The position numbers were made by a program, and so were the translations under genes. A model generated the notes under the pieces. That model searched no databases, had not been told where the DNA came from, and saw nothing but the letters and a program-made list of their open reading frames with translations. Shown piece by piece: positions 67 to 19,038 of a stretch of 27,427 bases of DNA. Each line of letters starts with the position of its first letter. Within the stretch, counting starts at the first letter, position 1. The stretch is from a virus: positions 1-27,427 of the IMG/VR virus record IMGVR_UViG_3300024273_002194, one strand, 5' to 3'.

Positions 67-1050
67 TTATTTAGACTTAGCTTGGCTTCTTGCTTTGTTT
101 GATGCCTGTCTGTCTGCTGCATTTTTCTTTTCCACCTCTTCTTGTATTCTTTGCATTACCCACCTTCTTTCGTAAACTGGCATATTAAAAACATCATCTC
201 TTGAAAATCCACCTTTTCCATAGTATGTAATTAAAAACACTTCATCCATCATATGCTGTCTATATTCGGGATTTAATCCAAAAAAGTTAGTATCTATAGG
301 TATTTTATTTTCTATAACATGTCCACAAGAATTGCAGGCCGTCCTTACGGTGTTGTCAACACCTGGCTCTACTTCATCCATGTAAGCCCTTAACTTAGCA
401 GAATCACCTAATGGCATTGACTTTATCACCCTTTTGATAAGACCTACGTCTCTCACGCCATTTATGCTAGTTATTTGATTTCTATAAGTGACTTCTATTC
501 TATTTTCCAACTTTAAGTCTCCAATTTTTCTCGCTTCTTTTTCAACAGTTTTTATTATCCTTCTTTCGTCTGCCAATGTTTTAGGCTTAAACTTAATGAC
601 AACACTTTCTCCTTTTATTTTCATTGTAGGCATTACAAATGTATACTCTAAATTTTCATCTGGCATGTCTTTAATTTCTTTCATTTCTAGCCCAGACAAG
701 TTGAAGCTTGATTCTGATTCCACTTGGCAATTAGAGCACTTGATGGTAAATGAAATTTTATCACCATAAGAGGTAGACCTTAGGTACACCATAAAAGCGT
801 CCCTATCTCCTATTAATAGCTTGTCTATATCACCTTCCCAATCCAACAAAGAAGAGCTCATTAACATCTCCAAGGCTCTGCCAGAATCTATTAAGGTCGG
901 AGAAGTTAACAAATTTTCCTCTTTAGCAGTAATATACTTGACTAGAAATGTTTCTTTTTTGTCCTCATAAAAAATGCCCCTTGATGGGATGGAAATCTCA
1001 TCAAAGGGCACACTGTTTTCTCTTACTATTTTCCTGTGAGATTCAGACAT
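67..1050 (-). CDS. Zinc-ribbon baseplate hub protein, gp26-like with gp51-like tail
   Basis: This 327-residue protein is a clear paralog of the gene just upstream. Both share a GDR(D/N)A segment, a CxxC pair following a YGD motif, and an EPG(I/V)D segment leading to a second CxxC (CNSCG). Here the cysteines are C105/C108 and C239/C242, a likely four-cysteine zinc site. The fold matches my memory of the T4 gp26-type baseplate hub family. After residue 265 it has an extra tail (YYGKGGF, then MPVYERRW) of the kind seen in T4 gp51-like hub assembly proteins and absent from its paralog. The last 20 residues are charged and probably disordered. Its start overlaps the upstream stop by one base (TAATG), which implies translational coupling. 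Likely role: assembly of the central baseplate hub of a contractile tail. The family call is from remembered motifs; the paralogy is seen directly. Confidence 0.6.
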   Translation of the reverse strand: MSESHRKIVRENSVPFDEISIPSRGIFYEDKKETFLVKYITAKEENLLTSPTLIDSGRALEMLMSSSLLDWEGDIDKLLIGDRDAFMVYLRSTSYGDKISFTIKCSNCQVESESSFNLSGLEMKEIKDMPDENLEYTFVMPTMKIKGESVVIKFKPKTLADERRIIKTVEKEARKIGDLKLENRIEVTYRNQITSINGVRDVGLIKRVIKSMPLGDSAKLRAYMDEVEPGVDNTVRTACNSCGHVIENKIPIDTNFFGLNPEYRQHMMDEVFLITYYGKGGFSRDDVFNMPVYERRWVMQRIQEEVEKKNAADRQASNKARSQAKSK

Positions 1051-1952
1051 TAAACCTTAGCATTAGGCCAAAAAAGTTTAGCAGTTATAGGAACCTCTTG
1101 AGCATATAGGGCTCCACAACTATTGCACTGAAAATCGTAATTTAAATCTATACCAGGCTCCATGTGTCTTAGATATTCTCTAAAAAAGAAACTGTCTGCT
1201 ATAGGCATAACTCCTATGAATTTTTTAATATAAGTTTTGTCTCTATTTCCATTAACATCCATTATTTGTAACAAATACCTCTCAGTAAGCACAGTTGCAA
1301 CCTTGAACTTTCCTCTCATAGTCTTTTTGCCAGTTTCACCAATCTTTTGTAACCTAGTCTCATCCGCTCCTGTCAAAAGTCTAAATTTAATATTTGCTTT
1401 AGACTTAGGTAGCATAACACTAAAGAACCCCTCTGAGTCTGGTGAGTCCTTAATTTCCTTGTCGCCTAATGACGAAAGTAGTATAGTGTTCACGTTAGTT
1501 TCATCGCAAGTAGGACAGCTTGTCTTAGTTTCATACTCATCACCGTATCCAGTGATTCTTAAGTTAATTAATACAGCATTTCTGTCCCCAGTAAGCATTT
1601 CTTCTGGCGTTATTTCTTTGTCAATCAACGCATTTTGTAACAAAACATCTAAAACCTTACCACTTTTAATAAGGTCGGTACTTGTTAAAATGTTTTCATC
1701 ATCAGCCGTTAAATACTTTACTTCAACAGTTTTTTTTCCATTTGGATAAAATGCGCCATTAGAAGGTAGGTCTATAAAATCGGTTGGAACTTCAAATTCA
1801 GTATCTATAAATTGAGCTGGTATATCGTGTTTTGCAGCAACATTTTGAGCTCTAGACTGAGGCTCTGTATGCGTCTGGGCCGTTGAGCCCTGACCTTGTG
1901 AAGGGTTAGTTCTTGATTGAACTGTTGGTTCTAAAGGATTATTTTCTTCCAT
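1050..1952 (-). CDS. Zinc-ribbon baseplate hub protein, T4 gp26-like
   Basis: This 300-residue protein begins with about 45 residues of Q/S/T-rich, probably disordered sequence. A structured part follows with C146/C149 (CPTC) and C276/C279 (CNSCG), and it ends in a VPITAKLFWPN motif like that of gp26-type baseplate hub proteins of T4-like phages. The two CxxC pairs probably bind one zinc ion. It overlaps the downstream paralog by one base, so the two are almost certainly co-translated and may act together in the hub. No Shine-Dalgarno is seen; the start is preceded by an A/T-rich leader. The alternative is a tail assembly chaperone of the same zinc-ribbon type. Confidence 0.6.
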   Translation of the reverse strand: MEENNPLEPTVQSRTNPSQGQGSTAQTHTEPQSRAQNVAAKHDIPAQFIDTEFEVPTDFIDLPSNGAFYPNGKKTVEVKYLTADDENILTSTDLIKSGKVLDVLLQNALIDKEITPEEMLTGDRNAVLINLRITGYGDEYETKTSCPTCDETNVNTILLSSLGDKEIKDSPDSEGFFSVMLPKSKANIKFRLLTGADETRLQKIGETGKKTMRGKFKVATVLTERYLLQIMDVNGNRDKTYIKKFIGVMPIADSFFFREYLRHMEPGIDLNYDFQCNSCGALYAQEVPITAKLFWPNAKV

Positions 1953-2041: not shown

Positions 2042-2509
2042 ATGAATGAAGAAGAGAAAAAGAAAAAAGTAGCATCTATATTGAGAAGAACAAAAAGGCA
2101 ATTACTTAAGCCGAAAAATAAAATAAAAAAAATAAAATACCTTCAAGCTCAAGCTTATAGAATGAGTAAGAATACGACTTGGCCAGAAAAAGAGTTTGAG
2201 TCAGTTCTGAAAGAGATGAATATAGAATACGAATCTCAAAAAATATTAAAAGGAAAAATATTTGACTATTACATACCATCATGTAATGTACTATGCGAGG
2301 TTGATGGAGATTATTATCATGGAAATGAGGAAAAATATGATGTATTAAGTGAAATGCAAAAAAAAATAAAGCAAAATGACAGATACAAAAACATTATATC
2401 TAAAGGCATGGGGTATGGTATATTTAGAGTTTGGGAATCAGAACTAAAAGACAATAGAGAACTTGTAAAGGAAAGGATTAGAAATGAAATATTAATTCAA
2501 AAACTCTAA
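2042..2509 (+). CDS. Freestanding Vsr-like (EDxHD-type) endonuclease
   Basis: This 155-residue protein has a lysine-rich first 40 residues, likely for DNA contact, and then a small Vsr/DUF559-like nuclease core. The spacing fits the EDxHD pattern: E49 in TWPEKEF, D75 in KIFDYYIP, H93 in EVDGDYYHGN and D113 in KQNDRYK. This family includes homing endonucleases found inside introns, between split-intein halves, or as stand-alone insertions in phage genomes. No intron or intein is visible in either neighbour, so this one looks like a stand-alone insert. It lies on the strand opposite to its neighbours, and its last 18 bases overlap the 3' end of the convergent helicase gene. A small repair nuclease is the alternative. 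Confidence 0.7.
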   Translation: MNEEEKKKKVASILRRTKRQLLKPKNKIKKIKYLQAQAYRMSKNTTWPEKEFESVLKEMNIEYESQKILKGKIFDYYIPSCNVLCEVDGDYYHGNEEKYDVLSEMQKKIKQNDRYKNIISKGMGYGIFRVWESELKDNRELVKERIRNEILIQKL

Positions 2510-6757: not shown

Positions 6758-7240
6758 ATGAAAGAGAATAAGCTAATTTTAGGCTTTGGGAGTGTTAAGG
6801 AATTGATGGATTCTGTACTCGGACTAAAGAACTCACTTGTAAATTTTGTACTTGCCGCATGCACAGCTTTAACATCATTTATAACACAATATATATGGGA
6901 TGATGCTTCTGCGGTATATTTTATGTTGTTTTTAATTTTAATTGACGCATCTACTGGTGTATGGAAATCTATTGTAAACAGAAGTTTTAGCAGCAGTAAA
7001 TTGCCTAGGATTTTTGTAATTTCCATAATATATGTTTTAATGCTATCTATAAGCTGGCATGCCGCAAAGCACTCAAGCTTGTTTGTCTGGTTGCCTGGTA
7101 TGGTTTATGGGGGACTAATTGGAACTCCTTTAGTTTCTATATATGAAAACTTTGCCGAATTAGGCTATGTACCCAAAGGGTTAGTTTATGATATTAAAGA
7201 AAAAATAAAAAATTACTTTAACAAAAAACATAACAACTAG
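6758..7240 (+). CDS. Phage holin, holin_4 (Cp-1-type) family
   Basis: This 160-residue protein has three to four hydrophobic segments: an N-terminal one around LVNFVLAACTALTSF, then AVYFMLFLILIDASTGVW, IFVISIIYVLMLSIS and WLPGMVYGGLIG. It carries the family signatures IDxxTGxxKS and SIYENFAELGYVPKGL, and ends in a basic cytoplasmic tail. Holins of this type form inner-membrane lesions that time lysis by releasing endolysin; no endolysin is recognisable nearby. I chose the ATG at 6758. An in-frame ATG at 6692 would add a polar N-rich leader and leave two bases between the divergent starts. The stop overlaps the convergent polymerase stop by four bases (CTAG). Confidence 0.85.
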   Translation: MKENKLILGFGSVKELMDSVLGLKNSLVNFVLAACTALTSFITQYIWDDASAVYFMLFLILIDASTGVWKSIVNRSFSSSKLPRIFVISIIYVLMLSISWHAAKHSSLFVWLPGMVYGGLIGTPLVSIYENFAELGYVPKGLVYDIKEKIKNYFNKKHNN

Positions 7241-9462
7241 TATACCCTCCTAAATTGACATCCATCCTGAAATTTTAACCAATTTCTTTCTTTGGAAAAC
7301 TTAGTCAAATATATACCTCCCTTTTCCACTAAATCCTTTATTCTATCATAAGCATCTGACCAAACTACCATCTTAACAGATGCGCCTCCATCGCTGAGTT
7401 CTAGAGACCAATATTTTTTGTTGTTTTTAGATATTTTTTCTACAACATCTTTTATCACAAAATAATAATATTTATCAGGATTTTCATAAGAAGTAACGGG
7501 TTCAACGTTAAAGTCATACTCTTCTTTAAATTGCTTCTTTATCTTAGATATTTTATCAAAAAGCTGTAAATCCAAACTACAAACATCTATAAAATCTTTG
7601 TACTTAATATCCTTGGGAGTTGGCTCAAACTTCTCCTTAAGACTCTCCTCTATAATGTCAAATCTATTTTGACCAAACAAGTCCATTTGCATAGTATTGC
7701 TTTTTATTTTAAACTTACGAAACTCCATAAGCTCTTCTCTAGACTCTGACCAATCATCAAAAACTCCTGCCTTTAAGCAGGCTTCAAAGTTTGCTTTATT
7801 GAATTTAGAAAATTTATGCATAAAAAACTTATCCTTACCAACATTAGAAATATCGACTTTTTGCAATTCTTCATAGGCAATTTCTCCCATACCATTTATA
7901 CTAGAAAAACCCATTAAAATAGTTTCTTCATCTAACATACCCCATTCCCATTTTGACTTTCTATTAGGAGGCAAAACTTTTATACCCTTAGTGAAAGCGC
8001 CCATTATAGCCGATGAAAGCCAAGACTCATCATCTTTAGCATGATTTAATAGAGCTGCATAGAATTCAGTAGGATAGTACCTCTTCATAAACAGGGTTTG
8101 CATAGCAACATAACTGTAACTCACTGAGTGTGAGCGATTAAAGGAATATCCTAAATACTTTACTAACCACTCTTCTATGTCTTTAACTTCATTTTCCTTA
8201 AGCCCCTTTTCTTTACAGCCTGACTTAAACTTTTCCCAAAGTGTCAAATACTCTTTATAGTTCTTATTATTATATTCTTTTTCTTCCAATTTATCTCCTG
8301 ACAAATTCTTTTTTATGATTTTTGAGGCCTTATCCATAACTTTCCTCAAATTATCACCCTCACCAAGAGTCATGCCTGCCAGCTCATGAGCTATAAACAT
8401 TAGTTGCTCTTGAAATATTAGTACACCATTAGTATTTCTAAGTAAAGGCTCTAGAGATGGGTGCACCAAACTTATTTCTTCTGGGTTTTTCTTATTTCTG
8501 ATGTACTCCTCGTGAGCACCAACTCCCATAGGTCCAGGTCTGTATAATGCATTTGCAGCCACCATCTCTTCGAAGCTCTCTATGTGCATTCTTTTTATCA
8601 GTTTAGACATACCATCAGACTCAAATTGAAACACCCCTTGATTGTTTCCGCTTCTAATCTCTTCAAACAAATCAGAATTGTCTAAATCAACATACTTTAC
8701 CTGCTCAGAAACATCTATACCCCTATTCTCTTTAACTAACCTTATAGCTTGTTTAAGTATGTTTAATGTTGTTAAATTTAATCTGTCTAACTTTAATATA
8801 CCTAAGTCAGATAAGTCTTTACCACTACCAGACTCTTGAAATCCAGAAACAGTGACTCCTTTTACCATATTTACAGGCATATATTCCCAAACAGGGCCTG
8901 GAGTTATGACTATGCCTGCGGCATGTTTTCCCAAATTTCTAACTTGACCCTGTAGAGTGAGTGTTGTATCTATTGTTTTTTTGTTACTGGGGCTTTCTAT
9001 CCATTTCTTAACCAAGTCAGAAGCTTCAGGTGTATTAGGGTGTTGTTCTAGCCAATCTTTTAAATCGCCATCATATTTCATAAACATTTTTGGCATTTCC
9101 TTGGTAACTGCAAATATTTCAGAATCAAACCCTCCGTCTCCTCCAAATGCCTTGACTACATCTTTTATACAACCCTTCTCATTAAATGTTGAAAATGTTA
9201 TTACTGGGAAAACGCATTCTTTTCCATATTTGTTATACAAGAACTCATCAGTCTTTACGTCTGAACCAGTCTCAAAATCTATGTCAATATCTGGTGGAGA
9301 ATTGTGTATTAACACACTGGAAATCAACGTGTTATGGCACTCACTTAAATCTTTACTTGAAGAGAAGAATAAATTATCTTTATCAAAAGATAGGTCATAC
9401 ACCTTTCCTTTATAAGGAATTTTTTTTATACTTCTAATTTTAGATATTTTCATAAGACTCAA
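7237..9462 (-). CDS. dnaE: DNA polymerase III alpha, C-terminal half with split-intein IntC
   Basis: Residues 1-54 are a C-terminal split intein: block F is KVYDLSFDKDNLFF, and block G ends VLIHN before Ser55. The C-extein then starts SPPDIDIDF, the palm motif whose D58 and D60 match two catalytic aspartates of E. coli DnaE. The third is D226 in LKLDRLNL. Other DnaE landmarks follow: RNLGKHAAGIVITPG, ALYRPGPMG, FQEQLMFIAHELAGM and FNRSHSVSYSYVAMQ. After the fingers come helix-hairpin-helix segments and an OB fold (FVIKDVVEKISKNNKKYWSLEL). The gene lacks the PHP, GRGSAAGS and thumb regions, which are in the other half. It is inactive unless spliced to it. Its start overlaps the endonuclease end by 23 bases; an alternative start is at 9453. 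Confidence 0.93.
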   Translation of the reverse strand: MSLMKISKIRSIKKIPYKGKVYDLSFDKDNLFFSSSKDLSECHNTLISSVLIHNSPPDIDIDFETGSDVKTDEFLYNKYGKECVFPVITFSTFNEKGCIKDVVKAFGGDGGFDSEIFAVTKEMPKMFMKYDGDLKDWLEQHPNTPEASDLVKKWIESPSNKKTIDTTLTLQGQVRNLGKHAAGIVITPGPVWEYMPVNMVKGVTVSGFQESGSGKDLSDLGILKLDRLNLTTLNILKQAIRLVKENRGIDVSEQVKYVDLDNSDLFEEIRSGNNQGVFQFESDGMSKLIKRMHIESFEEMVAANALYRPGPMGVGAHEEYIRNKKNPEEISLVHPSLEPLLRNTNGVLIFQEQLMFIAHELAGMTLGEGDNLRKVMDKASKIIKKNLSGDKLEEKEYNNKNYKEYLTLWEKFKSGCKEKGLKENEVKDIEEWLVKYLGYSFNRSHSVSYSYVAMQTLFMKRYYPTEFYAALLNHAKDDESWLSSAIMGAFTKGIKVLPPNRKSKWEWGMLDEETILMGFSSINGMGEIAYEELQKVDISNVGKDKFFMHKFSKFNKANFEACLKAGVFDDWSESREELMEFRKFKIKSNTMQMDLFGQNRFDIIEESLKEKFEPTPKDIKYKDFIDVCSLDLQLFDKISKIKKQFKEEYDFNVEPVTSYENPDKYYYFVIKDVVEKISKNNKKYWSLELSDGGASVKMVVWSDAYDRIKDLVEKGGIYLTKFSKERNWLKFQDGCQFRRVY
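9301..9462 (-). other. C-terminal split intein (IntC), 54 aa
   Basis: The block F-like segment is YKGKVYDLSFDKDNLFF and block G is VLIHN, with the penultimate His53 and terminal Asn54 needed for Asn cyclisation. Ser55 (codon 9298-9300) is the +1 nucleophile. Eighteen or so residues separate F and G, more than in most IntC pieces of 35-40 residues. Confidence 0.88.
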
Positions 9463-10540
9463 CTATATTTTTAATCATTATTATAATATTTTCCCTATTC
9501 TCTTTCCAGTCGTTCTCCCAAATTTCAATAAAATTACATTTGAGAATATTTATTATCTCATTTTTTCTCTTTCTGTCATCCTTCCAAATTTCACTTGCAT
9601 ATTTGTTTTTATTTTTATGATAAAAACTATTTTCATAAATTAAAGGATTACAATGCCAATAGTCTCCCATAACCTCTATCACTATTTTGTATTCTTCATT
9701 ATAATAATCAATCTTATAGAATTTATTTTTATTTATAACTAATATCTTCTGCCCTAAAGGTGATTTTTTAAAAAAAGAGTCTCCTGGGACTTCTTTTGAT
9801 ATTTCAGCAATAATTTCTCTTTCCAACTTAGATGTCTCTCCAAAATTTTTATTTACCTTTTTAGCATTTGCAAGCTGCCATTCATCAGAATAAAATAAAT
9901 TATCTACTCCAAATTTTTCTTGCATAGAAATCGTTACTGCAGAATAATGACAACCTCTCTCTAAAAACCATTTAACACCATATTTATTCTCTATTGTTTT
10001 TGAAATTTTATCTCTAATCTCTTTTATTTGAACAGGGGATGTCATTCCAGTAACTCCATAATTTTCATTTAAACTCCTATTAAAAGAGTCTCTATATTCT
10101 CTAGTTTTATAGTAAAGTGATTTATAATCTTTCTCCGAAATTATATAACCATGTGACCAAAATTTTACTCCCCCACGAGATGGATGTAATTTAACTAAAA
10201 CATTTTTTTTACTAAACCTATCATAAATCTGAATCTTCGCATCTGTTATTGAAATCTCTTTATTTAAATCAGTTTTTACTCTAACTGACTTCTGACCCCT
10301 TCCGCTTTTTCCAAAAAAACACCTTGTTGCTTTTCCAATATTTACCTCTCCTACAAAGACAAACTTTCCAACCACATTTTCCAAAGAAATAAATAAATCA
10401 CTCTTATATTCCCAATCTCTTTTTTCTTCTTCAGATGCTAACTTTAGCTCTTGAAAGCCAACTAAAGCTTCACACAAATCTTTTTGTGTATCAAAATTAT
10501 TATTTTCTATTTCTTCTTTTTTCATTTTACTATAATCCAT
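9440..10540 (-). CDS. EDxHD (Vsr-like) homing endonuclease between split-intein halves
   Basis: This 366-residue protein has its nuclease core at the C-terminus. E240 lies in SKLEREI, D278 in FYKIDYY, then EVMGDYWHCNP with H296, and D321/D322 in WKDDRKRK. This fits the EDxHD pattern of Vsr-like homing endonucleases. The middle carries two related segments (KYGVKWFLERG and KFGVDNLFYSDEW) that look like small DNA-binding modules common in homing nucleases. The first 150 residues are unassigned. It lies exactly between the two intein halves of the polymerase gene, the place expected of an endonuclease that cleaves the uninterrupted allele and spreads the element. A 30-bp spacer separates it from the upstream half, and it overlaps the downstream half by 23 bases. 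Confidence 0.85.
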   Translation of the reverse strand: MDYSKMKKEEIENNNFDTQKDLCEALVGFQELKLASEEEKRDWEYKSDLFISLENVVGKFVFVGEVNIGKATRCFFGKSGRGQKSVRVKTDLNKEISITDAKIQIYDRFSKKNVLVKLHPSRGGVKFWSHGYIISEKDYKSLYYKTREYRDSFNRSLNENYGVTGMTSPVQIKEIRDKISKTIENKYGVKWFLERGCHYSAVTISMQEKFGVDNLFYSDEWQLANAKKVNKNFGETSKLEREIIAEISKEVPGDSFFKKSPLGQKILVINKNKFYKIDYYNEEYKIVIEVMGDYWHCNPLIYENSFYHKNKNKYASEIWKDDRKRKNEIINILKCNFIEIWENDWKENRENIIIMIKNIVESYENI

Positions 10541-10570
10541 GTCTATAAATATAGATAAAAACTTTAAACT

Positions 10571-12775
10571 TTAAAAAGAAAACAGTAAGTCTGTTTCTTT
10601 TATTTCATCAACTCTTATTTCAATTCTTTTTTTATCTCTGAAAACAGGAATTATATGACACCCTGTGAGCTGAACAACAGAACCGTCTTCAGTCTCTATC
10701 TCAAATATATTCTCATGCTCTTCCAGCTCTCTCTCATGCTTCTGAACCAAGACTCCTTTTCCAGTTTCAGTCTGCACTGGGTCTCCGACTTTAACATCCA
10801 CTACATTTTTATAAGAACCATCTTTCATCATAACATTACAATTATCTGTAAGACAATTTCTGGCTGGATTTAAGAATCTTTCAAAATACAAATCAAACCT
10901 TATCGGGTCAATCTTTGTTATGTCTAAGCACCAAGAAAGTAAAGAGCCTGCCGCACTTCCCCTTCCTGGCCCTACCTCTATATCGTTGTCGGCACAAAAC
11001 CTTATAAGCTCCCAAACCACAAGAAAATAATCCAACATTTTCTTTTCTTTTATAACCTCCAGCTCATAGTCTAGCCTTTCTCTGTACTTAGAAATTTTAT
11101 CATCATCTATTTCAACAGGCCCACGCTCTTTATATATATTAAGCTTTTGATTAAGCTTAGCATGTGACAACCTTCTTATTATCTCTTCTCCATCATTGGT
11201 TTTAAAAAAGTCATAAACATCTTTAGTTGGCTTATATTTCGGATATTTCTCTACGTCTGTTTCAAAGTCAAAATTACATATAGAAGCAATTTTTTCACTT
11301 GTAATCATACACATTTTTATGAATTCTTCACTATAATTAAATCCATAATTCTTGTTCATTTCTAATATCTCAGACTCGTCAACGTAGTACATGTCCCTAC
11401 TGTCTTTGGTCCTAGCTCTTTTTATAGACCTTTTTTGATTTATTGAAATCAATACATCTTGTAGTACTTTATCCTTTTTTTCTGGGTAGTATATGTCATT
11501 AGAAATTATTACAGCCATACTATATTTGTCTGACATGTTAATTATGAAGTCATTATAATTCCTTTGTACCTCATTGTCCTCAAGGGAAATTTCGGCTATA
11601 TAAGACTTTTTTCCAAATGCACTTAACATGCTCACTAGATAATCTTCAGCATCTTTATATTTGCCCATTTGCAAATATTTACATATTGTTCCGTTTTTAG
11701 ATGAAGTTGTTAATATCAAACCCTCTTTATTCTCCAAAATCCATGAAGTTTTTATTCTAGGAACTCTATAAAAACCTTCAGCAAATGATAAATAATTTAT
11801 TTTATTAATATTAACAAAACCCTCTTTATTTGTAACTATTATTTTTTGAAGAACATTTTTATCTTGTTGCTTAGGCTCATACTCACCACCAATACTATCG
11901 TTTAAATGAAATTCACATCCTATTATCGGTTTTATGTTTTTAGATTTACACTTTTGATAAAAAGAAAAAGCACCAGACAAGCTACCTTTATCTGTCAAAA
12001 CTAAAGATTTGTGATTATACTTTTTGGCTAAATCAATATAATCAGAAGTTGAACCAGCACCTTCTAGTACAGAATGATAAGTGTGAACTCCAAAATTTAC
12101 CATAGAGAAGTCGTTATTAAAATCTCCATTTTTTGACTTCCACTTATTAATTATATTTTGTTCAGAATCAACTGAAGACATATGTGTTTTGAAGTCATCC
12201 CCAAAACCTAATCCACCTATTCTTCTGAGCTCGAAAAAACATCTAGCCAACGCCTCAACATCAACCAGTGCATCATGAGCATCTTCAAAAGCCTTGTTAA
12301 ACAACTTCTTGTGCAATTCTGTAAGAGTAGGAGGCTTAAGTCCCATCTTGCCTTGTATTCTACAAAAATCTATAGTAGAATTCATAGTGCATATATTCAC
12401 TATGTTTCTCATTGAATTTTTCATTTTTAATCTAAAAAACTCAGAAGCCGTAACTTTATTGTCGAAACTTACATTGTGTGCAACAATAAAATTAGAATTC
12501 TCTATATCTTTAGAAAATTCTTTCAAGACATCAGAAATTAAAACACCATCTCTGTTAGCTCGTTCATTAGTTATTCTATGAATTCTAATGCTATCATCTG
12601 GTATGACAAAACCGTCTGGTTTTATAATTTTATTATTAGAGCTTATGACTTTACCATTTATGTCATACACCTTCCATGCCAACTGAACTATTCTGGGCCA
12701 ATTGTCCGTATCGCTAACTGGTGCGCTAAAATCTTCAGGAAGCCCTGTGGTTTCTGTATCAAATACTATAAACAT
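10571..12775 (-). CDS. dnaE: Exonuclease-DNA polymerase III alpha, N-terminal half with split-intein IntN
   Basis: This 734-residue protein has three parts. Residues 1-190 are a DnaQ-like 3'-5' exonuclease: Exo I FDTETTG (D6, E8), Exo II AHNVSFDNKV (D105) and Exo III HDALVD (H167, D172). Next comes a DnaE PHP domain starting near residue 231 (GVHTYHSVLEGAG). The palm/thumb then runs to GPGRGSAAGS near 602 and FERFLNPARN at 631-640. Cys641 opens the N-terminal intein. After splicing to the other half the polymerase would be about 1,327 residues. Exo-PHP-polymerase in one chain resembles a PolC-like function with a different order. I chose the ATG at 12775 because it directly precedes FIVFDTETTG; an ATG at 12796 adds seven residues. 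The gene replaces the family B polymerase of true T4 phages. Confidence 0.93.
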   Translation of the reverse strand: MFIVFDTETTGLPEDFSAPVSDTDNWPRIVQLAWKVYDINGKVISSNNKIIKPDGFVIPDDSIRIHRITNERANRDGVLISDVLKEFSKDIENSNFIVAHNVSFDNKVTASEFFRLKMKNSMRNIVNICTMNSTIDFCRIQGKMGLKPPTLTELHKKLFNKAFEDAHDALVDVEALARCFFELRRIGGLGFGDDFKTHMSSVDSEQNIINKWKSKNGDFNNDFSMVNFGVHTYHSVLEGAGSTSDYIDLAKKYNHKSLVLTDKGSLSGAFSFYQKCKSKNIKPIIGCEFHLNDSIGGEYEPKQQDKNVLQKIIVTNKEGFVNINKINYLSFAEGFYRVPRIKTSWILENKEGLILTTSSKNGTICKYLQMGKYKDAEDYLVSMLSAFGKKSYIAEISLEDNEVQRNYNDFIINMSDKYSMAVIISNDIYYPEKKDKVLQDVLISINQKRSIKRARTKDSRDMYYVDESEILEMNKNYGFNYSEEFIKMCMITSEKIASICNFDFETDVEKYPKYKPTKDVYDFFKTNDGEEIIRRLSHAKLNQKLNIYKERGPVEIDDDKISKYRERLDYELEVIKEKKMLDYFLVVWELIRFCADNDIEVGPGRGSAAGSLLSWCLDITKIDPIRFDLYFERFLNPARNCLTDNCNVMMKDGSYKNVVDVKVGDPVQTETGKGVLVQKHERELEEHENIFEIETEDGSVVQLTGCHIIPVFRDKKRIEIRVDEIKETDLLFSF
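10574..10855 (-). other. N-terminal split intein (IntN), 94 aa
   Basis: Block A begins CLTDNCNVMMKDG with the nucleophile Cys1 (codon 10853-10855) directly after extein ARN. Block B is VVQLTGCHIIPV with the TxxH signature. The open frame stops 26 residues after block B, a normal end for IntN of about 90-110 residues. No endonuclease domain is fused. Confidence 0.9.
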
Positions 12776-12846
12776 AATAAATTTTATATCATACAAATAT
12801 AATAATTAAAGTTATTGAGTACAATTTTTTTGTAATATTTATTATT
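12776..12846. promoter_or_regulatory. Divergent spacer between polymerase and repeat-protein genes
   Basis: This 71-bp spacer is A/T-rich, with a run of seven T at about 12825-12831. Neither TATAAATA nor a Shine-Dalgarno is visible for either gene. It must carry the start signals of both, but I cannot point to them. Confidence 0.3.
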
Positions 12847-15616: not shown

Positions 15617-16342
15617 TTAATAAATATTAAGTTTTTCTTTTTTAAGCTCTGTAGAGGGGTTTTTATAACACCTTACATCAACTAAATGAGGTGCTCTCAT
15701 GTGAAACACGCTACTTCCATTACTAATAGAATATTTTTTATGTTTCTTTTCTATTAATAAATCTTTTTTATAAAAAGACAAAGCGTCACTTAATTTTAAG
15801 TGAAAATTTTTAAAAGCCATATCACACATCCCCCCAGTTGATGACAAACAAATTAACTTACCACCTTCAACCAAAGACTGTGATGAGTACGTTAATATAT
15901 TTTCTAAATCTTGATGATAAGCGGCCTCGTCTATAATAATAACATCAAACCTAGAACCTCTTAACTTATAGTAGTCATTAAAAGTTCTAAAACAAGAGCC
16001 TTCAAGATGTAAATCTTTCGCACCCCCTCTAAGCTTGTCTTCAGGATAGCCCCTTAATAAAAATCCTAGATGAGTTAAACATTCTGTTGACTCAAAAGGT
16101 GAAGCTCCAATAAAAGCTATTTCTTTTCTATCGTATGAACTCCTCATTAAATTGGCTACATAATATAAAATCACAGAGGTCATACCCGACTGCCTACTTT
16201 TCAGTATGGATATAACATTATTTCTATCAATAGTGTGTAATACTGATTTTTGATTTAAATCAAAATATTCAGGAATAACGCCCTTACTTTTAGAGTGTAA
16301 AAAATCTTTTATATTTGTTAAAAAACTTGTCATCAATGACAA
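15617..16342 (-). CDS. Terminase ATPase paralog without nuclease domain
   Basis: This 241-residue protein aligns by motif with the N-terminal ATPase of the full terminase next to it. The deviant Walker A is ILKSRQSGMT at residues 46-55, against VLKSRQMGLS in the terminase. Walker B is VIIIDEAAYH with D138/E139, and the coupling motif is CLSSTGG near 165-171. RGSRFD precedes Walker B where the terminase has GRGESL. It ends soon after the ATPase fold, with no RNase H-like nuclease. It could be a second motor or regulatory subunit, a small-terminase substitute, or a degenerating duplicate. The catalytic residues are intact, which argues against decay. It lies 30 bases after the terminase stop and 11 bases before the portal start. 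ATPase activity and role are inferred. Confidence 0.75.
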   Translation of the reverse strand: MSLMTSFLTNIKDFLHSKSKGVIPEYFDLNQKSVLHTIDRNNVISILKSRQSGMTSVILYYVANLMRSSYDRKEIAFIGASPFESTECLTHLGFLLRGYPEDKLRGGAKDLHLEGSCFRTFNDYYKLRGSRFDVIIIDEAAYHQDLENILTYSSQSLVEGGKLICLSSTGGMCDMAFKNFHLKLSDALSFYKKDLLIEKKHKKYSISNGSSVFHMRAPHLVDVRCYKNPSTELKKEKLNIY

Positions 16343-16372: not shown

Positions 16373-18034
16373 CTATGCTTTTATTGGCCCGTATAACCAA
16401 GAAGTGTCATTCAAATCGTCATCATCATCCCAACTATCTTTATTTGAACCATCTAAACTTAATGAGCTAACGTCTTTTTGGCTAAAACTTATCATATCTA
16501 ACATTTCTTTAGTTCTTTTCTTATTCCAAAATACAGATTCAAACTCAGTATCTCTAATTAACAGCGCAATAGCCATTCCAAATATTAAATCATCATTAAA
16601 TCCATTTTCATGCTCTGCCTTATCTCCTTTGTAAACAAAAGTTTCAAACTCTACAAGCAATCTTAGAGAGTTTATTTTAATTTCCATTTCTCTCATATAT
16701 TTTACCAACGAACTCATGAGTAAAGGTCTAGTTTTTACCGTTGTCTGAAATCCTGGAACATCTGTATCTTTGTCAACAACATAATTGTGAGTTCTATTGT
16801 ATAATTTAACTGCAGATTTAGATATATACATTCTTTCTTTAGGATATTTCAAGGTATTCTTTAGCATTAACGTTGTTGCTAAACCAAAACTGTTACACTC
16901 AACTGCCATAAAAGCATTATTATAATCCGTTCCCACCTTGTAAAGAAGTTCTGCAAATACATCAGGAACTATTTTTCCTTGAAATTCACCAACTTGCTCT
17001 AAGCTGTCAGCGTCTATTATTTGAACTGTAGAGAAATCGGCACCATCTCCTCTACCAACGTCAGACCCAATTATATAGTTCCCACCTTCTTTTGGTTTTT
17101 TCCATATATGAAAAGATGTTACATATTCACAAAAACTGCCATCTTTTTTCTTAAAATCATAATAGCATACAGGCTTTTTATCGCCTATGTCTTTGACATA
17201 TTTTTGTATTATTGAACTATCTATGACAACAGCGGTTGAGCCTTCAAAAGACAAATCTAATTCTTGTGCAATTTTAATTGTATTATGGTGCATTCTTTGA
17301 CACTCTCCATCATACCATGGGCTCCATGGATATTCTTTTCCATCAGAGTCTATTCTAGTCTCTAACCCTTTAGATAATATAGGATGTATAGACCAATGCA
17401 ACTTTATAGGAAAGAAGTTGCCCCTACCCTTATTTGCTTGAGTCCATGTTTGGTGATAAAGATTTCCAGTACCCTTAGGTGTAGAAATCATAATACACTT
17501 ACCTTGGGTAGCAGCCAAAGCCAGCCCAGCCCCCATCCATATATCTTGAGCATGCTCAATAAACGCGGTCTCATCTAATATCAGGCAAGTTAAAGATTCT
17601 CCTCTACCAGCCTGCTTACTACTGGCAACAGCCTTAACCCAAGAGCCATTAGAAAAAGATATTTGCTTTGTATTATTTATTAAAGTTTCTTCTGGTAGCA
17701 TCCAATCTGGTAATCTGTCCAAAAATTGTTTAACGGTATTCAAAAACCTAACGGCACCATTGCCACTATCAGCAACTACCAATATTCTTTCATCAGGACA
17801 AAAGGTCAACCTCCAGGCAACATATAAAGCTGATATGACTGACAGGCCCATCTGTCTAGATTTTAAAACTATTGAGTTTTGACTATCATTAAACTGATTA
17901 AGACAATCTTCCTGATAGGGAAAACACGTCATTTTCCCCATCTGCTGTTTCTCCATGTCAAAAACATATCCATATGTATTCGCAAAATATACTGGGCTTT
18001 TTGCGCAAGAAACGTATTCTTCAATATAATTCAT
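16373..18034 (-). CDS. Terminase large subunit
   Basis: This 553-residue DNA-packaging motor has the ATPase deviant Walker A VLKSRQMGLS (lysine K58 displaced upstream as in lambda gpA), Walker B CLILDETAF with D154/E155, and coupling motif ISTP near 183-186. The RNase H-like nuclease has acidic residues in IIGSDVGRGDGADFS (D325), AVECNSFG (E379) and GFNDDLIFG (D481/D482). The length is ordinary for the family. The protein docks on the portal, cuts concatemeric DNA and drives it into the prohead. No small terminase subunit is recognisable in the window. A second ATPase-only copy follows it, then the portal. The start at 18034 has no Shine-Dalgarno and an A/T-rich leader with a TATTTATA box 18 bases upstream. 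Confidence 0.93.
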   Translation of the reverse strand: MNYIEEYVSCAKSPVYFANTYGYVFDMEKQQMGKMTCFPYQEDCLNQFNDSQNSIVLKSRQMGLSVISALYVAWRLTFCPDERILVVADSGNGAVRFLNTVKQFLDRLPDWMLPEETLINNTKQISFSNGSWVKAVASSKQAGRGESLTCLILDETAFIEHAQDIWMGAGLALAATQGKCIMISTPKGTGNLYHQTWTQANKGRGNFFPIKLHWSIHPILSKGLETRIDSDGKEYPWSPWYDGECQRMHHNTIKIAQELDLSFEGSTAVVIDSSIIQKYVKDIGDKKPVCYYDFKKKDGSFCEYVTSFHIWKKPKEGGNYIIGSDVGRGDGADFSTVQIIDADSLEQVGEFQGKIVPDVFAELLYKVGTDYNNAFMAVECNSFGLATTLMLKNTLKYPKERMYISKSAVKLYNRTHNYVVDKDTDVPGFQTTVKTRPLLMSSLVKYMREMEIKINSLRLLVEFETFVYKGDKAEHENGFNDDLIFGMAIALLIRDTEFESVFWNKKRTKEMLDMISFSQKDVSSLSLDGSNKDSWDDDDDLNDTSWLYGPIKA

Positions 18035-18676: not shown

Positions 18677-18994
18677 CTATAGGCCTACATATATTGTTGG
18701 AGAAGGGTTGATTTCGGAATCAGTTTTAACGCTATATATTTCAGAAACGTAAACAACACTAGTTGTAGTGTTTTCTATGTTTAACTGATAAGTTCCTAAA
18801 GTAGATGCTGACCAAGATATTGAGTACATGCCTTCTGATGCACTTGACAAAAAAGAACTAACTGTCACCCCAGTATTAATTATACCATCAACATAAACAG
18901 TTGAACTAAAAGTTGCTGGTGTTACTGGTGTGTTGGTTGTTGGATTAAATGACCTTACCAATTCGTGTATTGTTTGACCTGTAGATATATTCAT
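18677..18994 (-). CDS. Small beta-sandwich-like structural protein, 105 aa
   Basis: Not named. This S/T-rich sequence has the alternating pattern of an Ig-like beta-sandwich: STVYVDGIINTGVTVSSF, then GMYSISWSASTLGTYQLNIE, with aromatic residues in expected core strands, then VVYVSEIYSV. There is no signal peptide or cysteine. Such modules occur as small decoration, adaptor or fibre-associated virion proteins. It lies between the tail-side genes and the terminase. The start is preceded by a TATTTATA-type leader also seen before the homing endonuclease. Confidence 0.65.
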   Translation of the reverse strand: MNISTGQTIHELVRSFNPTTNTPVTPATFSSTVYVDGIINTGVTVSSFLSSASEGMYSISWSASTLGTYQLNIENTTTSVVYVSEIYSVKTDSEINPSPTIYVGL

Positions 18995-19038
18995 CTTTTA
19001 TAAATAGAGATAAAAACTTAAATAATATAGATATAATG

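What the first reader, a model, noticed from the sequence alone, without database searches (positions are those of the whole stretch)
9301..10855. Fractured polymerase III alpha gene: split intein with an EDxHD endonuclease gene between the halves
IntN (Cys1, block A, TxxH block B) ends one gene and IntC (block F, HN, +1 Ser) begins the other, with a separate Vsr-like endonuclease gene exactly between. This is the 'fractured gene' layout described from metagenomic phage data by Dassa and colleagues, here complete with both extein halves of a phage replicase. Neither half looks able to work alone, so phage replication would depend on protein trans-splicing.
Basis: partly seen in the sequence, partly recalled or inferred. 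Interest (0 to 1): 0.88.

Follow-up and report, generated by a model that had tools for sequence, protein, structure and literature searches.

The report
Phage polymerase split by trans-splicing intein
A phage's replicative DNA polymerase gene is cut in two by a mobile split intein that carries its own DNA-cutting enzyme, so the two protein halves are predicted to be stitched together after translation; relatives suggest the insert arriving, the gene broken in three, and the stitching apparently lost.

Summary
On the minus strand, a DnaE-type polymerase III alpha gene (with a fused N-terminal DnaQ-like exonuclease) is broken before its PDIDID motif. The first half ends in a 94-aa IntN (Cys1, TxxH). 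A Vsr/EDxHD-like endonuclease gene follows. The second half opens with a 51-aa IntC ending HN|S. Predicted splicing gives 1327 aa, the length in 5 of 6 uninterrupted relatives measured (the sixth: 1326). This is a fractured gene in the sense of Dassa and colleagues, so the kind is known.

Comparative work adds four things. (1) Insertion is patchy: 8 of 21 IMG/VR contigs classified carry the element, 13 lack it at this site; flanks suggest co-conversion. (2) Two further split-intein sites exist in the same gene. L027 has its polymerase in three pieces with two split inteins and two endonuclease-like genes; L019 has a third-site insert absent from relatives 99.98% identical over 9.4 kb. (3) A 22-bp noncoding block before the endonuclease gene occurs in 8 IMG/VR contigs, all 8 this element. 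(4) Cellulophaga and Tenacibaculum phages have the polymerase split at the same place with an intein remnant lacking splicing residues, so dependence of replication on splicing is plausible but unproven.

The parts
10856..12775 (-). N-extein of DnaE-type polymerase III alpha, 640 aa: DnaQ-like exonuclease, PHP, start of the polymerase domain; ends ...FLNPARN
   Evidence: start Met chosen by alignment with intact relatives (MFIVFDTETTG), not the TTG at 12796
10574..10855 (-). IntN, 94 aa, Cys1, block B TGCH; stop codon 10571-10573
   Evidence: 60-76% identical to the IntN of four other elements
10542..10563 (-). conserved noncoding block AGTTTTTATCTATATTTATAGA, putative control element of the endonuclease gene
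   Evidence: invariant apart from one A/T position in five elements; the 22-bp pattern occurs in 8 contigs of viral contigs, all 8 this element
9440..10540 (-). free-standing homing endonuclease gene, 366 aa (361 aa if it starts at 10525); catalytic domain about residues 231-366, Vsr/EDxHD-like
9301..9453 (-). IntC, 51 aa, block F VYDLSFDKDNLFF, ends LIHN; its start overlaps the endonuclease gene by 14 bp
7240..9300 (-). C-extein, 687 aa, begins with +1 Ser: SPPDIDIDF, then the rest of the polymerase domain, finger, HhH and OB domains; stop codon 7237-7239

Best explanation
A mobile element made of a naturally split intein (class 1 by its residues) plus a free-standing Vsr/EDxHD-type homing endonuclease sits in the catalytic-core codons of a phage DnaE polymerase gene. 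The two halves are translated separately, IntN and IntC associate, Cys1, the TxxH histidine, the C-terminal HN and the +1 Ser drive protein trans-splicing, and a 1327-aa polymerase results. The endonuclease cuts uninterrupted dnaE genes of co-infecting phages at the same site, and repair from the filled copy spreads the whole cassette. Shown here: layout, conservation of splice residues, length restoration, patchy presence, purifying selection in one pair of relatives, flanks that fit co-conversion. Inferred: splicing itself, cleavage of the empty site, regulation of the endonuclease by the conserved noncoding block.
For: Anatomy and 1327-aa restoration. Same layout in L022 (L023 and L024 alike), L025, L026, L027 with Cys1, TxxH, HN and +1 Ser kept in all five distinct elements. 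Patchy presence: at least 4 changes of state on a 15-row extein tree. Between L022 and L025 dN/dS is 0.05 (IntN), 0.09 (endonuclease), 0.16 (IntC), 0.10 and 0.08 (exteins), with dS 1.3-1.8 except IntC 0.57. Flanks: filled L022 and L025 carry TCTCCTCCCGATATTGA after the insert, as in the window's clade (empty L006 equals L022 over the first 18 bases), while their empty kin L054 and L055 carry AGTCCRCCAGATATTGA. The endonuclease catalytic-domain profile matches 3r3p (E 1e-6) and the model resembles Vsr and I-Bth0305I. No Rfam family at gathering score in the window, hence no catalogued intron.
Against: No biochemical test. Pfam intein scores are below curated cut-offs, as may be expected for half-inteins. 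The window's catalytic domain alone matches no Pfam family at 0.01 and the profile of the five close endonucleases does not reach 3r3p at E 1; only the wider 24-member profile does, and in that alignment 3r3p differs at Asp278, Asp293 and His296. Fold scores (Z 8.4-9.7) are only a little above what models without a clear match reach by the tool's own note. Co-conversion at site a rests on few sequences, and no reduced-identity tract is seen around the window's own insertion. Element and extein trees have the same unrooted five-taxon topology, so movement there rests on patchiness, branch lengths and flanks.
Confidence: 0.9

Rival explanations
1. The gene was fractured by a split intein, but the polymerase now works as a non-covalent two-subunit enzyme and splicing is dispensable.
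For: Cellulophaga phages phiST, phi13:1, phi19:2 and Tenacibaculum phage Larrie have dnaE split at the same point; N-half tails (alignment of phi19:2, Larrie and BS-TP1) match the second half of IntN (hhalign probability 93.8%, E 1.7e-7 for one comparison, 46 columns; Cellulophaga tail 25.8 bits, Larrie 14.3 bits with the site-a profile, none of 1000 shuffles each as high; with a wider profile 20.5 and 11.1 bits, 0 and 1 shuffle as high) but lack Cys1 and TxxH, and the C-halves lack HN|S. The tail still looks constrained: 21.6 of 33 synonymous against 37.4 of 126 nonsynonymous sites differ, Fisher p 1.8e-4 on rounded counts with sites taken as independent.
Against: In the window and its four distinct relatives all splice residues are intact, and IntN and IntC are under purifying selection in the one pair measured, as expected if splicing is needed.
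Confidence: 0.1
2. The insert is a group I or II intron with an intron-encoded endonuclease, spliced as RNA.
For: Endonuclease genes in intron-like gaps appear to interrupt dnaE in other phages, such as phage G gp329-gp331 and Bacillus phage KLEB27-3.
Against: No Rfam match at gathering scores in the window; both extein edges continue in frame into intein motifs with Cys1 and HN|S.
Confidence: 0.01
3. Assembly artefact or a dying, inactivated gene.
For: The window is a viral record of 27,427 bases whose ends may be those of a fragment.
Against: A second, 125-kb record at 99.94% identity over 18.2 kb, further distinct elements with the same layout and open frames, purifying selection in relatives.
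Confidence: 0.01

Closest known systems
Fractured genes (Dassa et al. 2009, NAR, gkp095; paper not held; known to me by recall and from its title in reference lists)
   Same: Split intein whose halves flank a free-standing endonuclease gene inside a DNA-metabolism gene from metagenomic data; new homing endonuclease family
   Different: Host gene here is DnaE-type polymerase III alpha, split before the PDIDID motif; whether that paper lists a dnaE locus I could not check
Fractured PolB of Pseudomonas phage MIJ3 (PMC6892783, passages read)
   Same: Putative split intein with an endonuclease gene between two halves of a phage DNA polymerase
   Different: Family B polymerase and an HNH-family endonuclease
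Cyanobacterial split DnaE inteins (Ssp, Npu; recalled, titles seen in reference lists)
   Same: DnaE assembled by trans-splicing
   Different: By recall: halves far apart in the chromosome, no endonuclease between them, another insertion site in the protein
I-Bth0305I (PDB 3r3p), EDxHD homing endonuclease
   Same: Catalytic-domain family by 24-member profile (E 1e-6) and fold (Z 8.4)
   Different: 3r3p is labelled a mobile intron protein and differs at three of the columns invariant here; the rest of the window's endonuclease was not matched to it
Bacillus phage G gp329 intein (L144)
   Same: Intein in a phage DnaE
   Different: Contiguous, not split, and at site b (GPGRG|C...HN|SAAGS), 38 codons upstream

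Membership tests
Fractured gene (split intein plus free-standing endonuclease) | One gene broken in two, the halves ending and beginning in intein halves at the same extein position | tested here: met
Fractured gene (split intein plus free-standing endonuclease) | Separate endonuclease reading frame between the intein halves | tested here: met
   frame; kinship
Fractured gene (split intein plus free-standing endonuclease) | Uninterrupted alleles of the same gene exist | tested here: met
   13 of 21 IMG/VR contigs classified lack the insert at site a
Class 1 split intein (features recalled) | Cys1 or Ser1, block B TxxH, C-terminal HN, +1 Cys/Ser/Thr | tested here: met
   Cys1, TGCH, HN, +1 Ser in the window; kept in all five distinct elements, block B being TGEH in L027
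Class 1 split intein (features recalled) | Protein trans-splicing activity | not testable with these tools
   needs expression
Hint/intein fold | Profile match to Hint or intein families | tested here: met
   Pfam Hint 3.5e-6 and Intein_splicing 2.6e-5, both below curated cut-offs; Hedgehog chain 1at0 E 4.2e-5
EDxHD / Vsr-type homing endonuclease | Sequence and fold kinship with I-Bth0305I or Vsr | tested here: met
   24-member profile hits 3r3p at 1e-6 and 1cw0 at 0.066; 4 of its 24 members match Pfam Vsr at up to 0.01; VIA Z 9.1 (1vsr), 8.4 (3r3p). Against: Foldseek E 0.022 at best; the window member alone and the 5-member profile give no such match
EDxHD / Vsr-type homing endonuclease | Catalytic residues of the motif in register with the crystal structure | tested here: inconclusive
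   Asp278, Glu289, Asp293, His296, Asp322 invariant in 24 sequences; 3r3p keeps the Glu column but differs at Asp278, Asp293 and His296, and Asp322 is outside the aligned part; whether the crystallised chain is a mutant I did not check
EDxHD / Vsr-type homing endonuclease | Cuts the uninterrupted allele | not testable with these tools
   needs a cleavage assay

The most novel reading that the evidence does not exclude
In phages with this kind of polymerase the dnaE gene has become a nest of split inteins. Some (L027, probably L019) build their polymerase from three separately translated chains by two trans-splicing reactions. In others (Cellulophaga and Tenacibaculum phages) splicing has been lost and the split kept, the intein remnant surviving under selection as a docking domain that holds a permanently two-subunit polymerase together.
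Probability: 0.35. Interest if true: 0.85.

Novelty: new member of a known kind. Interest (0 to 1): 0.62.

Why it matters
It puts a fractured gene in the catalytic core of a replicative polymerase and, through relatives, suggests several stages of its life: empty gene, recent insertion with a 10-bp stretch that looks like co-conversion, stable split, double split, and apparent decay into a divided polymerase in named phages. That makes two questions testable: how free-standing endonucleases move split inteins, and whether trans-splicing can be dispensed with once a gene is split. It also offers new natural split inteins, two of them in one protein (L027), which should therefore not cross-react (inference).

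Tried and rejected
Group I/II intron: no Rfam match at gathering scores in the window. A co-conversion tract around the window's own insertion: identity to L005, L012 and L016 shows no clear dip there. Discordant element and extein trees: the five-taxon unrooted topologies agree; only path lengths read from the trees hint at transfer (window to L022 0.69 for the element against about 1.17 for the exteins, while L026 to L027 is about 1.2 against about 0.58). Full-length endonuclease model: pLDDT 59.8, not used for a fold search. IntN against phage records at E up to 1: best E 0.6, so no close relative of this IntN found there. Split TerL in the window: two terminase-like ORFs look like a TerL plus an ATPase paralogue, no intein model matched. 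KLEB27-3 split dnaE: HNH gene in an intron-like gap at another site, no intein seen. BS-TP1 and MT835494 as further decayed inteins: signals are mixed (BS-TP1 N-tail 6.5 bits with 10 of 1000 shuffles as high in one profile, 14.7 bits with none in another; its C-half start 7.8 bits, none as high; MT835494 8.4 bits with none, 6.2 bits with 1), so I do not count them, although BS-TP1 is a row of the alignment used. C-half starts of the Cellulophaga phage and Larrie do not match IntC convincingly (37 and 2 shuffles as high). RNA hairpin at the conserved block: favoured in four relatives (z -2.6, -3.2, -1.9, -2.1) but not in the window (z +0.68 and -0.11). Lists seen only in part: 60 of 1432 phage records for the N-half, 60 of 1299 for the C-half, 30 of 1218, 20 of 1328, 40 of 1131 for the site-b piece, of which I opened only phage G for this question, 5 of 2007 plasmid records, 80 of 226 confirmed dnaE loci. 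L009 (21% identity) and L056-L129 (32% or less) were not counted among the relatives; those of them that a simple pattern could read at site a came out as empty or unclassified. Literature: 10 searches of the open-access library, two of them listing only part of the papers found (10 of 49, 20 of 24), showed no title, abstract start or passage that I recognised as a report of a fractured phage dnaE or a three-piece polymerase; PMC7824862 mentions a split polymerase III catalytic subunit of jumbo phages in a figure legend that I did not follow. The 2009 fractured-gene paper is not held. I make no claim of priority.

Full report
What is there. Minus strand: dnaE-N (10571-12775, stop included), endonuclease (9440-10540), dnaE-C (7237-9453). 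The N-half has a DnaQ-like exonuclease, a PHP domain and the first part of the polymerase III alpha domain; the C-half has the rest of that domain, finger, HhH and OB domains. The break lies at NPARN|SPPDIDID. IntN has Cys1 and TGCH; IntC has VYDLSFDKDNLFF and HN followed by Ser. Splicing would give 640+687=1327 aa. Of six intact relatives measured, five are 1327 aa and one (L015) 1326; L007 and L008 are alike over the 380 residues compared.

How common. 21 IMG/VR contigs that encode this polymerase at about 43% identity or more were classified at site a. 8 are filled: 3300024273_002055 (the window's phage, 99.94%), 3300028361_000012, 3300012147_000007 and 3300012031_000007 (identical over the 380 C-extein residues compared), 3300035034_003151 (N-extein, IntN and partial endonuclease 100% identical in protein to L022; the contig ends before IntC), 3300031162_001603, 3300018080_000237 and 3300035698_028134. 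13 lack the insert at site a. Three of those 13 carry another split intein at site b, 38 codons upstream, GPGRG|C...HN|SAAGS (L013, L017, L019), with only about 120 bp and no gene between the halves. These are not frequencies: two of the searches can find filled contigs only, and one search was cut at 80 loci.

Third site and three-piece polymerases. At site c, GYSFN(R/K)|SHS, L027 has an IntN, a 317-aa endonuclease-like frame (PHROG HNH family, E 3.5e-4) and an IntC ending SN|S. Its polymerase is thus in three pieces with two split inteins and two endonuclease-like genes. L019 has the site-b split and a site-c IntN; its contig ends soon after, so the third piece is not seen, and the 78-aa frame that follows matched no PHROG. 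A scan with L027's site-c endonuclease found only its own contig.

A recent insertion. L019 is 99.98% identical in DNA to L013 and to L017 over 9367 bp (2 mismatches each). The match stops 10 bp before the site-c insertion, where 4 synonymous changes fall in 10 bp (TCG TTC AAC AGA to TCT TTT AAT AGG), and only L019 then has the insert. I read this as short co-conversion during homing from a divergent donor. At site a the filled alleles L022 and L025 carry TCTCCTCCCGATATTGA downstream of the insert, as in the window's clade, while their empty kin L054 and L055 carry AGTCCRCCAGATATTGA. L007/L008 have Gly at +1 (NPTRK|GPPDIDID), which by known intein chemistry could not support splicing; I note it only as a possible resistant allele. 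Filled and empty neighbours can be close: window and L005 95%, L025 and L055 90-92%. On the extein tree the filled state needs at least 4 changes over 15 rows; L055 (one in-frame stop) and the duplicates L008, L017, L023 and L024 were left out of it.

The endonuclease. The four other distinct proteins are 48-58% identical to the window's. More remote relatives in viral and genome contigs mostly share only the catalytic domain. A 24-member profile of that domain finds I-Bth0305I (3r3p, E 1e-6) and Vsr (1cw0, E 0.066) in the PDB; the profile of the five close proteins does not. The predicted catalytic domain (pLDDT 89.6) is nearest to the endonuclease-like NGO0050 (3hrl, Z 9.7), Vsr (1vsr, Z 9.1) and I-Bth0305I (3r3p, Z 8.4); Foldseek gives E 0.022 at best. 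Asp278, Glu289, Gly292, Asp293, Tyr294, His296, Asp322, Trp341, Glu342 and Asp344 are invariant in the 24 sequences, but 3r3p differs at Asp278, Asp293 and His296.

A conserved noncoding block. Between the IntN stop and the endonuclease start all five distinct elements carry AGTTTTTWTCTATATTTATAGA. Scanned exactly against all viral contigs it occurs in 8, and all 8 are this element; seven have contig names known and the eighth was read. Of the 144 loci then held, the 14-bp core occurs in 11, all copies of the same elements. In the window one further copy with 2 mismatches stands directly upstream of ORF 18677-18994, where 0.02 copies are expected in shuffled sequence at up to 3 mismatches. I infer a promoter or translation-control element that the endonuclease gene carries with it. 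Its direction and mode are unknown, and a hairpin is predicted in four relatives but not in the window.

Decay. In Cellulophaga phages (five records with identical proteins) and in Tenacibaculum phage Larrie, dnaE is split at the same place, with 1-2 bp between the genes. The N-half ends in about 50 residues related to the second half of IntN (shuffles) without Cys1 or TxxH, and the C-half starts without HN|S. The tail looks constrained between the two phages. So a split polymerase can persist without the splice residues, which weakens the claim that each fractured polymerase must be ligated, though it does not settle it for the window, whose splice residues are intact. Chryseobacterium phage MA9V-3, a relative (C-half 36%), has the gene whole.

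Compared with what is known. The architecture is that of fractured genes as I recall them from Dassa et al. 2009 (not held). MIJ3 shows a similar layout for PolB with an HNH enzyme (PMC6892783, passages). The EDxHD family is described in PMC3943268 (passages). Neighbouring inteins that hinder each other's homing are described in PMC10643990 (passages); here none of the 21 contigs has both a and b filled, but numbers are small. A jumbo-phage survey (PMC7824862, passages) mentions a split polymerase III catalytic subunit in a figure legend and an intron in the phage G polymerase gene; I did not read it further.

Verdict. The finding is real and in the main correctly read. In kind it is known, but its position in the host gene, the insertion snapshots, the three-piece relative and the decayed relatives make it worth a specialist's time.

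Noticed in passing
2042-2509 (+): A 155-aa DUF559/Vsr-like putative homing endonuclease lies on the opposite strand between baseplate-hub-like genes and an exonuclease V/Dda-like helicase gene.
   Followed up: partly
18997-19016 (-): Near copy (2 mismatches) of the element's 20-bp noncoding core directly upstream of an unknown 105-aa ORF; the block may be a phage promoter.
   Followed up: partly
15617-16342 (-): A second terminase-ATPase-like ORF (241 aa) next to a TerL gene at 16373-18034.
   Followed up: no
67-1952 (-): Two adjacent ORFs both match the baseplate hub family phrog_150.
   Followed up: no
12236-12769 (-): DnaQ-like exonuclease domain fused to the N-terminus of DnaE; the N-exteins of L026 and L027 are about 180 residues shorter and match only from about the PHP domain on.
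   Followed up: no
L144 3973-7945; L142 81-3478: Endonuclease genes (GIY-YIG by eye) sit at or near site a of dnaE in phage G and in fecal contig MT835601, so this codon region may be a hot spot for several kinds of insert.
   Followed up: partly
L138 5523-7259: In MT835494 a DNA-methyltransferase-like and HNH-like frames (by eye) lie between the two dnaE halves; in Bacteroides phage BS-TP1 (L139) an annotated Dda-like helicase does.
   Followed up: partly
L055 8301-8303: A single in-frame stop interrupts an otherwise uninterrupted dnaE; error or real, not resolved.
   Followed up: no
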